DNA of 13,357 nt from positions 1 to 13,357 of the forward strand of contig CANGYC010000036.1 in assembly GCA_947457975.1 (NCBI GenBank), in the 5' to 3' direction. The position numbers were made by a program, and so were the translations under genes. This DNA is from Comamonadaceae bacterium. Lineage in GTDB: Bacteria > Pseudomonadota > Gammaproteobacteria > Burkholderiales > Burkholderiaceae_C. Positions 8,394 to 11,861 of this stretch are shown here, in pieces. How positions within the stretch are numbered: position 1 is the first letter of the stretch; each line of letters opens with the position of its first letter. The notes below the pieces were generated by a model. That model was not told where the DNA came from, ran no database searches, and saw only the letters and a list, made by a program, of their open reading frames with translations.

Positions 8394-9578
8394 TCAGGCG
8401 GGAGTGGAGGTGGCCAGGGCGGCCTGCTGCGCCAGGATGGTGGCGCACAGGTGCGAGGCCAGGCTGCGCAGCAGCGGTTCGGCACGGTCCAGGCGCTGAA
8501 TGGCCCGATCGATGGGAAAGACCCGTGCGTTGATGTCCTGCAGAGCGGCGTAATGCAGGCTGAAGTCCTGGCCCGTGAGGCCCTCGGCCACGCCGACCAC
8601 ACTGCCCTGCCCCAGTTGCAACAGGTGATCGCCCAGGCGAATTTGCGCCCGACCGTTGACCAGCATGGTCCCCAGGCCCAGGTGCTCCTCCCCCGGGCGG
8701 CCCAGGCTCATGCCGGCACGCAGAAGACGCGTGGGCATGAGCTCTGTGCCCTGCAGCTTCAGGCACATGCGCTGGGCTTTGTTCAGGGCTTCATCCGTGG
8801 AGGCGTCCTTGTTCTCCAGCAGAGCGCGTTGAAGCTCGGAGCCAGTCAGGCTCTTTTGCCCCATCAGCTCGTACTTGGTCGGCGCCAGGCCTGCGGCCAT
8901 GCGCGCAGTGATGTCACTGACCATGCGGTACTGCAACACCAGGGACATCATGAGGTGGGGCAACAAGGTGGTGTCGGCGGCCAGTGCCTTGCGCAGGTCG
9001 GCTGCACGAACCAGGGCGCATCGGGCCTGGCCCACGGCGGTGAGCGATTCGGTGTGCACCCCTTCTTCAAAGAGGGCATGCTCGCCGAACACCTCGCCCG
9101 GCCCTACGATGCGCTCGGCACTGCCATCGCCCTGTTGAGACACGCGCAACTGGCCGTACAGAAGAATGAAGATGTGCTCGCCGCGCTCGCCCAGGCGGTA
9201 CAGCGGTGCGCCGTCCTCGTAAGTGCGTGCATCACCCAAGGCCTCGGTGGCTGCCATGGCCGGCAACAAGCGAATTTGAGGGGGCGCGGGACGCGCGGCC
9301 TGAGCTGCAGCGGCAGGCGCCTGGGGTGAGGCCCGAAAAATCGAAGGCGTGGGCTTGCGCGTGTTCTGCAGCAAGGCATGGGTGCGGGCGTCCAAAGGCT
9401 CGGGCGACTCGACCCCGTGCTTTTTGAGTTCTGCCAGGGCACGCGTGAGTTCGACTTCGAGGACGCGGGAGACGCCCGAGGCGACAAAGCCGACGGGCGG
9501 TCTTCCTGGTTCATGGAAGAATTTTTCCGCAGCGTCAGTACGGGGTGTGAGAGAAGCCTCGCGGGGATCTTGAAGCAT
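8394..9578 (-). CDS. Cyclic-nucleotide-binding-domain protein, paralog A (394 aa)
   Basis: Numbered from the ATG at 9578. An N-terminal segment (about 11-60) has TPRTDAAEKF and PPVGFV, then a Pro/Ala-rich linker (about 75-110). CNB domain 1 (about 115-215) contains YEDGAPLYRLGE, FILLYGQLRV and the phosphate-cassette start FGEHALFEEG. The cassette arginine that normally contacts the cyclic phosphate is replaced by His175 (GVHTES), so cAMP/cGMP binding is doubtful. A helical linker (about 216-285) leads to a degenerate second CNB fold with GVAEGLTGQDF (about 329-339). There is no helix-turn-helix, kinase, cyclase or membrane segment, so it is not a Crp-type regulator. It is homologous throughout to the next upstream gene. 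A GTG at 9590 is an alternative start; neither has a clear ribosome site. Output function is unknown. Confidence 0.88.
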   Translation of the reverse strand: MLQDPREASLTPRTDAAEKFFHEPGRPPVGFVASGVSRVLEVELTRALAELKKHGVESPEPLDARTHALLQNTRKPTPSIFRASPQAPAAAAQAARPAPPQIRLLPAMAATEALGDARTYEDGAPLYRLGERGEHIFILLYGQLRVSQQGDGSAERIVGPGEVFGEHALFEEGVHTESLTAVGQARCALVRAADLRKALAADTTLLPHLMMSLVLQYRMVSDITARMAAGLAPTKYELMGQKSLTGSELQRALLENKDASTDEALNKAQRMCLKLQGTELMPTRLLRAGMSLGRPGEEHLGLGTMLVNGRAQIRLGDHLLQLGQGSVVGVAEGLTGQDFSLHYAALQDINARVFPIDRAIQRLDRAEPLLRSLASHLCATILAQQAALATSTPA

Positions 9579-9630
9579 GGAAAGCCGCACTGAGCAAAGG
9601 TTTCTGGCAGAGGCAAGCCCGGGACAGGAA

Positions 9631-9672
9631 CCAGGCCCTGAAGGTGCCTGGAGAGGCCTGATTCAGGGTCTC
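9631..9672. repeat. Two adjacent hairpin-forming dyads in the leader of paralog A
   Basis: CCAGGC (9631-9636) and GCCTGG (9646-9651) form a perfect six-base stem. Immediately beside it, GAGA-gg-CCTGA-T-TCAGG-g-TCTC (9651-9672) forms a broken nine-pair stem. Both lie in the 211-bp gap between the two CNB genes, some 50-95 bp before the start of paralog A. No T-run follows on the minus strand. They could be mRNA leader structures or protein sites. The rest of this gap shows no gene and no convincing promoter. Confidence 0.35.
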
Positions 9673-9789
9673 AAAACGTTTGAAAATGTAACAGATGAAG
9701 AAGGCAGCAGGTCGATGCTCGGCCTCAAGGTGCTTGCTCCATGACCAACAGGACAGCGAAAAGAGGGCGACAGGAGGTCAGCGGCAGGT

Positions 9790-10992
9790 TCAGCTGGCAA
9801 AGGAGCGCTGCAGCTCCAGAATGCGCGAGGTGGTGTAGCGCACGATGCCGCCGATGCCCGAATTGGCGCGTTCCAGGTCGCGCAGCACCCGGTCCATGGG
9901 GATGATCTTGACGGTGACGTCTTCCAGCGCCACCAGCGACCAGGTGAAAGGCGTGCCGGTGATGCCCTCGGCCAGGCCCAGCACGCTGCCGTGGCGCAGG
10001 CGGATGGACTTGCCGCCCACGTGCGCCTCCACAGCCCCCTCCACCAGCACAAAGGCTTCGCCATCCGGTGGTTGGGAGGGGCTGCCCAGGGAACGCCCGG
10101 CACGGTAAAGGCTGGTCTGCAGGCGGTCGGTGGCCTGCAGCTTGAGGTAAGTCAGCTGCTCGGCGCTCAGGCCGTGCGAATTCGGGTTGGCGTAGGCCTC
10201 GTTGAGCTTGCGCTGCATTTGCACGGAGTTGAGGTTTTCGTCGCCCAGGATCTCGTACACCAAGGCTGCGTCCGGCTTGGCCATCTGCCGCGTCAGGAAG
10301 TTGGCCATGCTCTGCTGCAGCAGCAGGCCCTCGACCGTAGGCACCAAAAGGCCCGTGTCGGCCTTGAGAATGGCGCGCAAGGGCTCGGTGCGGATCTCGA
10401 TGCACTTGACCTCGCCGGATGCGCGCACCGAGGCGCCGCGCACACCTCCCTCAAGAATGGCCATCTCGCCGAAGGACGCGCCCTGCCCCAGCGTGGCCAG
10501 CACGCGGTTGTCGGCCGGGTCGAACACCTCCACCGAGCCGGCGGTGATGATGGCCAGGTGATTGGCGGCATCGCCCTTGTTGAAGAGCACCTGCCCGTCT
10601 TCGTACACCACGGTCTCGCCTGCATTGACCGGGGCCGTGCTGGGCTTGATGGCCTGTGGCCTTGCCACAGGCGCCGGGGCCGGCTCGGCACTGGGCAGGG
10701 GTGCGGCAAACATCGAGCGGCGGGGGGCGGCGCGCACGGGCTCGGCCGCGGCGTCGGCGGACTCCTCTGGCGTGCTGTTCACGGGCGGCTCAATGCCATT
10801 GGCCCGCAGCAGCTCATGGGCCTCGGCCAGTTCCAGCTCAAGCCGCTTGGCCACCTCTGACAGCACGAAGCCCGTGGGCTTGGCGTTGGGCGCAAAGAGG
10901 AATCGCTCGGCCGCATCCACCCGCGGGGTGCGCGAGTTCGGGTCGCGCGGCGGCGGCTTGCGCGAAGATGGAGAGGAAGGCAGCGAGCTCAC
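9790..10992 (-). CDS. Cyclic-nucleotide-binding-domain protein, paralog B (400 aa)
   Basis: It has the same architecture as paralog A. The N-terminal segment has TPRVDAAERF (22-31), KPTGFVLSEV and LELELAEAHELLRANGIEPP, then a Pro/Ala-rich linker (about 72-122). CNB domain 1 (about 127-225) has VYEDGQVLFNKGD and an intact phosphate cassette: FGEMAILEGG (174-183) followed by Arg185 and Ala187-Ser188. Real cyclic nucleotide binding is therefore plausible. After a helical linker, a degenerate second CNB fold carries GLAEGITGTPF (339-349). No output domain is recognised. The start is taken as GTG at 10992 because this matches paralog A in length; no ATG lies near, and no ribosome site is visible. 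It follows the HD phosphodiesterase-like gene by 38 bp, so they are probably co-transcribed and it may sense the nucleotide that enzyme degrades. Confidence 0.88.
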   Translation of the reverse strand: MSSLPSSPSSRKPPPRDPNSRTPRVDAAERFLFAPNAKPTGFVLSEVAKRLELELAEAHELLRANGIEPPVNSTPEESADAAAEPVRAAPRRSMFAAPLPSAEPAPAPVARPQAIKPSTAPVNAGETVVYEDGQVLFNKGDAANHLAIITAGSVEVFDPADNRVLATLGQGASFGEMAILEGGVRGASVRASGEVKCIEIRTEPLRAILKADTGLLVPTVEGLLLQQSMANFLTRQMAKPDAALVYEILGDENLNSVQMQRKLNEAYANPNSHGLSAEQLTYLKLQATDRLQTSLYRAGRSLGSPSQPPDGEAFVLVEGAVEAHVGGKSIRLRHGSVLGLAEGITGTPFTWSLVALEDVTVKIIPMDRVLRDLERANSGIGGIVRYTTSRILELQRSFAS

Positions 10993-11030
10993 GGCGTTGG
11001 TCGAAAGGGGGAGCGATACAGACCGTGCCC

Positions 11031-11861
11031 TCAGGCACTGGCAGCCGCCTCGAGGCTGGCGAGCTGGTCGGCGCGGATGGCCGGGATGCCCAGGCGCCGG
11101 CTCGCCGGACTGGAAAAAAGGGCCCCAAAGCGCAGAAAGCCCATCCGGCCAGCCTGTGTGAGCACCTGCCGGGCACGCTGCTCGTCCACCGGCAGCCATT
11201 CGCGCGCCAATTGACGCGTGAGCTCCAGGCCAGGGTCAGGCAGGCTGCTGGCCAGGATGTCGGCCTCCTGCACCAGCACGGCCAGGCAATCCGGGTCGGT
11301 GATGGAAAAGGGCCGAGAGGCAATGCGCTGGTGCGAGGCCGACACCTTGGTTGGGTCGGTCAGAAGGATGAACTCACGCACCAGGGCACGGTCGGCTGCG
11401 GCCACGCCGTGGCGCGCCATGAGCGGGGCCAGGGCGTCGGCCGAACGCAACTCCAGCTGGCTGGGGCTCTGGTTGATGGTGCCGTCGTGCAGGTAATCGT
11501 GGCCCAGCATGGCCAGCATGGCCACCCATTCGGCGTGGCTGGGCCGCGTGTTCGAGGGTTCATCCTCGCGGCTGAGCAGCAAGAGAGTGGTGAGGGCTAC
11601 CAGCGCATCGGCCATATGCAGGCGGTTGTGGTAGGCCGGCTCCTGCCCCAACGCATGGCGGCTGCGGCCGTCGTGCTCGATGAGCTGCGCCAGTTCCTGC
11701 ATGCAGGCGTGGATGGACCGGTCCTCGGCCGCGAGGGCTCGCCGCGAAGCATGGCCCAGGCGGCCCAGGCAGCGCTCCATCACCAGGGCCAGACCGGGCC
11801 AGGCCTGGGGCCAGGGTTGCCTCAGGTTGCGGAAGGTGGTCTGAAGGTCGTCGAAGGTCAT
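11031..11861 (-). CDS. HD-domain protein resembling class I 3',5'-cyclic nucleotide phosphodiesterases (276 aa)
   Basis: The metal-site signature of class I PDEases can be traced. YHNRLHMADAL (77-87) gives the general-acid histidine His78 and metal ligand His82. GHDYLHDGTINQ (120-131) gives metal ligands His121-Asp122 plus His125 and Asn130. EADIL (199-203) gives Asp201, placed like the second metal aspartate in the ADLSNP segment of mammalian PDEs. In that family these residues hydrolyse cAMP or cGMP to the 5'-monophosphate. The purine-binding glutamine near the C-terminus (QxGF) is not seen; the best-aligned segment is RMGF (239-242). An N-terminal helical region (1-70) has no known domain, and no transmembrane segment is visible. 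It precedes two CNB-domain genes. Another HD phosphohydrolase activity cannot be excluded. The start codon has no clear ribosome site. Confidence 0.82.
   Translation of the reverse strand: MTFDDLQTTFRNLRQPWPQAWPGLALVMERCLGRLGHASRRALAAEDRSIHACMQELAQLIEHDGRSRHALGQEPAYHNRLHMADALVALTTLLLLSREDEPSNTRPSHAEWVAMLAMLGHDYLHDGTINQSPSQLELRSADALAPLMARHGVAAADRALVREFILLTDPTKVSASHQRIASRPFSITDPDCLAVLVQEADILASSLPDPGLELTRQLAREWLPVDEQRARQVLTQAGRMGFLRFGALFSSPASRRLGIPAIRADQLASLEAAASA

What the first reader, a model, noticed from the sequence alone, without database searches (positions are those of the whole stretch)
8394..11861. Class I PDE-like enzyme encoded with two stand-alone cyclic-nucleotide-binding proteins
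Seen: an HD protein with YHNxxH, HDxxH and a downstream ADI aspartate, followed on the same strand by two CNB-domain proteins with no DNA-binding or enzymatic output domain. Known: class I PDEases hydrolyse cAMP/cGMP and are uncommon in bacteria, and CNB domains bind these nucleotides. Inference: this may be a self-contained module in which the PDE sets the ligand level read by the CNB proteins. No cyclase is in the window. This block is the best candidate here for an undescribed signalling system.
Basis: partly seen in the sequence, partly recalled or inferred. Interest (0 to 1): 0.72.

Follow-up and report, generated by a model that had tools for sequence, protein, structure and literature searches.

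The report
Bacterial cAMP enzyme with paired receptors
A freshwater-type bacterium carries a gene block that looks like one half of a small cyclic-nucleotide circuit, an enzyme of the animal phosphodiesterase type plus two receptor-like proteins, and many relatives carry the other half, the cyclase that would make the signal.

Summary

Among 70 related loci, CNB-A and CNB-B lie next to the PDE in 40 of 50 betaproteobacterial-type loci. A class III cyclase lies within 1.5 kb on the same strand in 23 of these 50 and in 16 of 20 alphaproteobacterial loci, which have no CNB. Two inputs recur: SiaC-type partner-switch genes (15 of 50), whose cyclases carry the SiaC-docking motif of SiaD (15 of 15 vs 0 of 37 others), and CheR-CheB genes (6 of 50).

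Best reading: a cyclase/PDE/CNB module, probably for cAMP, of which the window holds PDE and receptors only. The window's incomplete genome has one weak FHA-type cyclase and its nearest relative none. Activity, ligand and output are untested.

The parts
11031..11861 (-). Class I-type phosphodiesterase-like HD enzyme, 276 aa
11616..11633 (-). YHNRLH motif (residues 77-82; H78, H82)
   Evidence: H78 and H82 each in 55 of 55 beta-set and 17 of 17 alpha rows
11472..11501 (-). HDxxHxGxxN motif (residues 121-130)
   Evidence: H121 and D122 in 53 of 53 ungapped beta-set and 17 of 17 alpha rows; N130 in 51 of 52 ungapped beta-set rows and in no large share of alpha rows
11247..11267 (-). EADILAS (residues 199-205) with the metal-binding aspartate D201
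   Evidence: D201 in 52 of 52 ungapped beta-set and 17 of 17 alpha rows; aligned to the PDE5 aspartate, weakly,
11133..11147 (-). RMGFL (residues 239-243): Arg at the place where class I PDEs have the nucleobase-binding Gln (recalled motif)
   Evidence: R239 in 48 of 51 ungapped beta-set and 16 of 16 ungapped alpha rows; the equivalence itself is inferred
9790..10992 (-). CNB1, 400 aa: N-terminal conserved segment, low-confidence linker, CNB-A, helical linker, CNB-B
   Evidence: PF00027 92.3 bits; AF2 model pLDDT 82.6; fold matches to PKA-R/PKG tandem CNBs
10438..10473 (-). CNB1 phosphate-binding cassette FGEMAILEGGVR (residues 174-185), canonical Glu and Arg
9793..10209 (-). CNB1 CNB-B domain, degenerate cassette (GSVLGLAEG)
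   Evidence: own CNB-B profile, 183 bits; this sequence was among the profile's seeds; alignment
8394..9578 (-). CNB2, 394 aa, paralogue of CNB1
   Evidence: PF00027 58.5 bits; 27-member family of its own
9054..9089 (-). CNB2 cassette FGEHALFEEGVH, in which the phosphate-binding Arg is His (H175)
   Evidence: His invariant in 27 of 27 aligned rows

Best explanation
The block is the hydrolysing and receiving half of a cyclic-nucleotide signalling module, most likely for cAMP. In relatives a class III cyclase, driven by a SiaABC-type phospho-switch or a chemosensory array, makes the nucleotide. CNB-A binds it and passes the signal through the degenerate CNB-B to an unknown protein partner, not to DNA. 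The class I-type PDE resets the signal. In the window's lineage the CNB-A and CNB-B units are fused and duplicated; the second copy (CNB2) lacks the phosphate-binding Arg and may be a constitutive or decoy partner. Shown by sequence or model: domains, fold, residue conservation, gene association. Inferred: catalysis, ligand identity, direction of signalling, output.
For: PDE fold and conserved metal residues. CNB-A and CNB-B within 1.0 and 1.3 kb of the PDE on the same strand in 40 of 50 betaproteobacterial-type loci; cyclase within 1.5 kb on the same strand in 23 of 50 and, in alphas, 16 of 20. Recurrent orders SpoIIE-SiaB-SiaC-cyclase-CNB_B-CNB_A-PDE (complete in 10 loci) and CheR-CheB-cyclase-PDE-CNB_B-CNB_A (6 loci); Pfam confirms the Sia genes in L012, L020 and L036, and REC-cyclase, CheA and MCP in L047. 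Cyclases show K in K-x-[ILV]-G-D, with D (Che type) or T (Sia type) at the second base-contact site where my pattern could be read: the adenylate type, as recalled. CNB-A cassette FGE...R read in 45 of 49 matches; the exceptions are the two CNB2 copies (His), L042 (Arg present, pattern too strict) and the weak match L051. A and B occur as separate genes, fused A-B (window) or fused B-A (L033), which suggests that they work together. Complete genome G617 has MCP-MCP-PDE-CNB(A-B), with a cyclase, CheR and CheB on the other strand, the cyclase about 11 kb away.
Against: No enzyme or binding assay. The window PDE is under the Pfam cut-off, and only one PDB chain reached Foldseek E 0.001. The apparent Gln-to-Arg change leaves substrate choice open. 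No match in the own genome for SiaC or CheB, and no typical module cyclase; G164, 89% complete, has no PF00211 match. 27 of 50 beta-set loci have no cyclase within 1.5 kb on the same strand, though several are cut by contig ends, and in L033 the cyclase is split over two frames. CNB matches in 0 of 20 alpha loci. No output partner was identified.
Confidence: 0.7

Rival explanations
1. The module is real but the nucleotide is not cAMP: the Arg in place of Gln and the CNB cassette serve cGMP or a pyrimidine cNMP.
For: R239 conserved in 48 of 51 ungapped beta-set and 16 of 16 ungapped alpha rows. Two Sia-type cyclases match a PADLOC PycC model (98.8 and 90.9 bits) and one Che-type cyclase does so less well (54.8 bits); CNB1 matches the CNB regions of Pycsar TIR and PycC models weakly (31.6 and 30.1 bits).
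Against: Cyclase base-contact residues are K with D or T where read, adenylate-like as recalled. PycC proteins are class III cyclases too, so a match is expected for any of them (recalled). No TIR or other effector domain above its Pfam cut-off in the CNB proteins.
Confidence: 0.15
2. The HD enzyme is a phosphohydrolase of another substrate and sits by chance beside CNB genes; the CNB proteins serve unrelated signalling.
For: Below the PF00233 cut-off; a weak phosphohydrolase match in PHROGs (24.1 bits); no NCBIfam match.
Against: All 50 rows shown by VIA-align are class I PDEs; repeated adjacency to CNB genes and cyclases in beta-set loci and to cyclases in alphas.
Confidence: 0.08
3. In the window's own lineage the block is a degenerating orphan remnant, its cyclase and chemosensory inputs lost, that no longer signals.
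For: No match for CheB in G000 and G164 or for SiaC in G000 and G120; only a weak GC-FHA cyclase in G000 and no PF00211 match in G164.
Against: All three ORFs are open in the window and in L004 at 96-97% identity, catalytic residues are intact, and seven homologues at 57-72% PDE identity seem to keep PDE and CNB1 on one contig. Both genomes are incomplete.
Confidence: 0.15

Closest known systems
Class I cyclic-nucleotide phosphodiesterases (PDEase_I, PF00233; e.g. PDE1B, PDE3A, PDE4D)
   Different: Stand-alone 276-aa protein, 12-21% identity in the rows shown, below the Pfam cut-off, Arg where the nucleobase-binding Gln is expected, bacterial gene block with CNB genes
PKA regulatory subunit / PKG tandem CNB proteins
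   Same: N-terminal segment, linker, then tandem CNB-A and CNB-B; top Foldseek matches
SiaABCD of Pseudomonas aeruginosa (PMC8457831: passages and section 8 seen; PMC7647112: passages seen)
   Same: 15 of 50 relatives carry SiaC, most with SpoIIE-type phosphatase and SiaB (DUF6272), next to a cyclase whose stalk has R-[HI]-[SA]-D-[RK], the SiaD R80-I81-S82-D83-R84 site
   Different: The output cyclase is class III (PF00211), not a GGDEF diguanylate cyclase; not found in the window or its genome
CRP/FNR regulators
   Same: CNB-A domain
   Different: No DNA-binding domain found
Pycsar (PycC plus CNB effectors; features recalled)
   Same: Class III cyclase and CNB proteins
   Different: No effector domain found, a PDE is present, inputs are Sia or Che genes

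Membership tests
Class I PDE (PDEase_I) | Fold of the catalytic domain | tested here: met
Class I PDE (PDEase_I) | HNxxH, HDxxHxGxxN and metal-binding Asp | tested here: met
Class I PDE (PDEase_I) | Score above the curated PF00233 cut-off | tested here: not met
   window 17.8 vs 24.8 bits; relative L012 31.3 bits, over it; L020 24.3 and L026 21.6, under it. Hence described as class I-like, not filed as a PF00233 member
Class I PDE (PDEase_I) | Conserved Gln that binds the nucleobase | tested here: inconclusive
   Arg at the recalled Q-x-x-F position by motif and spacing; no residue-level superposition available
Class I PDE (PDEase_I) | Hydrolysis of 3',5'-cNMP | not testable with these tools
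   needs an assay
Cyclic nucleotide-binding domain (PF00027) | Score above cut-off | tested here: met
   CNB1 92.3, CNB2 58.5, cut-off 27.5 bits
Cyclic nucleotide-binding domain (PF00027) | Phosphate-binding Arg and Glu | tested here: met
   met in CNB1 domain A only; not in CNB2 domain A (His) nor in either domain B
CRP/FNR transcription regulators | C-terminal helix-turn-helix | tested here: not met
   no such Pfam match in CNB1 or CNB2
PKA regulatory subunit | Docking domain, inhibitor site and partner kinase | tested here: inconclusive
   no Pfam match in the N-terminal segment and no kinase among the seven window proteins scanned; partner unknown
SiaABCD system | SiaC present | tested here: not met
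   no match in G000 (78% complete) or G120; present in relatives G092 and G121
SiaABCD system | GGDEF output enzyme SiaD | tested here: not met
   class III cyclase next to SiaC in the relatives scanned, L012 and L020
Pycsar | CNB effector with TIR or transmembrane output (recalled) | tested here: not met
   only PF00027 above cut-off in CNB1 and CNB2; weak CNB-region matches to Pycsar models; no transmembrane prediction was run

The most novel reading that the evidence does not exclude
An undescribed, exchangeable bacterial cAMP circuit: a class III cyclase that takes the place of the diguanylate cyclase SiaD under SiaABC control, or serves as the REC output of a chemosensory array, with its own class I-type PDE (with an altered base pocket) and a two-piece, PKA-R-like receptor that acts on proteins and not on DNA. 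The window is a derived form with fused, duplicated receptors.
Probability: 0.5. Interest if true: 0.75.

Novelty: new variant of a known kind. Interest (0 to 1): 0.62.

Why it matters
Bacterial cAMP is mostly studied through CRP-type DNA-binding receptors (general knowledge). Here is a compact set of cyclase, class I-type phosphodiesterase and output-less CNB receptors, wired in relatives either to a phospho-switch that the papers I saw describe for c-di-GMP, or to chemosensory genes. If true it gives a testable case of one nucleotide circuit being swapped under the same kind of input, a bacterial counterpart of the animal-type PDE, and a possible local cAMP signal to protein partners in freshwater bacteria.

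Tried and rejected
PF00233 searches gave no match in the own genome and 4 matches, 1 over the cut-off, in 274 genomes of the class. That profile misses the window enzyme itself, so it undercounts this family, and I used the protein and profile A1 instead. phmmer of the window PDE alone against PDB sequences: 0 matches. A transcription-factor reading of the CNB proteins was rejected (no HTH match). A defence reading (Pycsar) was rejected as the main account: PADLOC gave no match for the PDE and CNB- or cyclase-level matches for the others. A link to the neighbouring acyl-CoA genes was not pursued; of the loci searched, only L004 had the ligase, FadB and thiolase genes directly around the block. 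Promoter and terminator scan: nothing above chance. Class I adenylate cyclase (PF01295): no match in G000 and G164. The first motif control collapsed many non-Sia cyclases into one and is replaced. The first, stricter stalk pattern (R-x-S-D-R) missed L048, L069 and the G092 cyclase; I loosened it after reading those sequences. Paper searches for a prior description (four of them listed no paper): listings only, apart from term-find passages of PMC7647112 and term-find passages plus section 8 of PMC8457831. I saw no title or abstract start in those listings that describes this module. The library lacks most subscription journals.
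Full report
What is in the window. On the minus strand lie an HD enzyme (11031-11861, 276 aa), CNB1 (9790-10992, 400 aa) and CNB2 (8394-9578, 394 aa). The mechanical ORF start of CNB1 at 11199 lies inside the enzyme gene. Homologues support GTG 10992, just after the enzyme's stop, and ATG 9578 for CNB2. Around the block lie acyl-CoA metabolism genes: an AMP-binding ligase, a FadB-like protein, a thiolase and an SDR. Overall base composition does not set the block apart (GC 0.66-0.69); third-position GC of CNB2 is lower (0.77) than that of the six other genes measured (0.85-0.89).

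Neighbourhoods. One scan of the species-genome collection with two peptide patterns gave 70 loci; loci without those patterns are missed. I sorted them by record title into 20 alphaproteobacterial and 50 others, which I call the beta set (Betaproteobacteria or Burkholderiales titles; L008 is titled only 'uncultured bacterium'). In 40 of the 50, CNB-A and CNB-B lie within 1.0 and 1.3 kb of the PDE on the same strand. L008 and L044 show only CNB-A. In L006, L007 and L021 a CNB match is on the opposite strand (the L021 match is weak, 26 bits). L010, L024, L025, L026 and L051 show none; L025 and L051 are cut by a contig end on one side. A class III cyclase lies within 1.5 kb on the same strand in 23 of 50 (22 with both CNBs; in L033 it is split over two frames) and somewhere in the fetched locus in 30 of 50. 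In the alphas the cyclase is adjacent in 16 of 20 (of the four others, L059, L061 and L070 end within 300 bases of the PDE), and CNB matches are found in 0 of 20. The profiles were built from a few of these loci themselves, so scores are partly circular. Pfam scans of examples confirm the labels: REC plus PF00211 in L047; PF00211 in L043, L012 and L020; SiaC PF09345, DUF6272 and SpoIIE in L012, L020 and L036; CheA and MCP domains in L047.

Two wirings. Fifteen of the 50 loci have SiaC in the locus (L012, L020, L027-L030, L034-L036, L041, L043, L045, L048, L069, L071). Ten of them show the full order SpoIIE-SiaB-SiaC-cyclase-CNB_B-CNB_A-PDE; L029 and L030 lack upstream genes at the contig end, L069 lacks a same-strand SpoIIE, L012 has SiaB-SiaC-cyclase-SpoIIE-PDE-CNB(A-B), and in L020 the Sia genes and cyclase lie on the opposite strand. 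Six (L031, L039, L040, L046, L047, L072) have CheR-CheB-cyclase-PDE-CNB_B-CNB_A. In P. aeruginosa, SiaC activates the diguanylate cyclase SiaD by binding its helical stalk, with contacts that include R80, I81, S82, D83, R84 and Q86 (PMC8457831, section 8 read). Cyclases from loci with SiaC carry R-[HI]-[SA]-D-[RK]-x-[QE] before the catalytic core in 15 of 15 distinct cases, against 0 of 37 other cyclases in the set (nine fragments or cyclases without the K..GD pattern were set aside, and repeats with the same core were counted once). I take this as good evidence that SiaC docks on them. The pattern was fitted to these same sequences and the paper, so the contrast is descriptive.

Ligand. Where my pattern could be read, the cyclases have K in K-x-[ILV]-G-D and D (Che type) or T (Sia type) at the second base-contact site, the adenylate type from recalled knowledge. 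In 45 of 49 CNB-A matches the cassette reads FGE...R; the others are the CNB2 copies of the window and L004 (His), L042 (Arg present, pattern too strict) and L051 (a 23-bit match). The residue after the Arg is G, S, N or D in the rows I read, except Thr in L044; Thr there is typical of cGMP sites (recalled). cAMP is therefore the best guess, not a result.

The window's place. In the PDE tree (76 rows) the window groups with eight rows (97/94 support), L004 and seven database proteins, apart from the Sia and Che groups. I labelled those seven as having fused CNB from contig lengths, and P0002 by assumption. Seven relatives at 57-72% PDE identity have PDE and CNB1 matches with the same longest-contig length (P0005/P0124, P0007/P0127, P0008/P0128, P0010/P0131, P0012/P0125, P0013/P0130, P0014/P0129), which I read as the same contig; P0247 (CNB2) shares the length of P0005. 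Fused CNB proteins are rare in held genomes: 3 of 399 in the family at E up to 1e-30, with four candidates scored per genome. The PDE is found in 3 of 120 family and 8 of 87 genus genomes, the window's own included in both. In G617 (100% complete) the order is MCP-MCP-PDE-CNB(A-B), with a cyclase plus CheR and CheB on the other strand, the cyclase about 11 kb away, and a Sia-type cyclase elsewhere. G092 has PDE-CNB(A-B) on one contig and Sia- and Che-linked cyclases on others.

Against the reading. The window genome (77.8% complete) has one GC-FHA cyclase at 47 bits, no match for SiaC or CheB, and one MCP match. G164, its 97% relative at 89% completeness, has no PF00211 match, no CheB match and two MCP matches. 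Of two further genus genomes with a PDE, G190 and G191, neither showed a CNB or cyclase in the fetched stretch. So in this clade the half-module may take its nucleotide from elsewhere, or may be an orphan. No output partner is known.

Verdict. The kind of system (cyclase, PDE, CNB) is known; I saw no description of this combination in the listings of my ten paper searches.

Noticed in passing
L049, L050, L052-L062, L064-L068, L070, L073 (20 alphaproteobacterial loci, e.g. L055:9752-12768): A divergent relative of the PDE sits directly upstream of a class III cyclase in 16 of 20 loci, with no CNB match.
   Followed up: partly
L033:740-1579: One ORF carries CNB-B then CNB-A, the reverse fusion order to the window's CNB1 and CNB2.
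   Followed up: no
window 10813-10932 (CNB1) and 9429-9548 (CNB2): Fused CNB proteins share a conserved N-terminal segment (TPRxDAAERF...P.GFV.S...LE.EL) with no Pfam match; perhaps a docking segment.
   Followed up: no
L011, L013-L017, L019: In these mostly Limnohabitans-type loci the CNB_B-CNB_A-PDE genes lie near a gene that I labelled flagellar hook-type by eye (not Pfam-checked), several also near MCP genes.
   Followed up: no
L088:9659-10654 (window's own genome, contig C11): A GC-FHA class III cyclase, the only PF00211 match in the own genome.
   Followed up: partly
L043, L068, L073: Lake MAGs bear names such as Bordetella parapertussis, Asaia bogorensis and Roseomonas mucosa; L043 groups with Betaproteobacteria- and Comamonadaceae-titled MAGs in the PDE tree, so its label is doubtful.
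   Followed up: no
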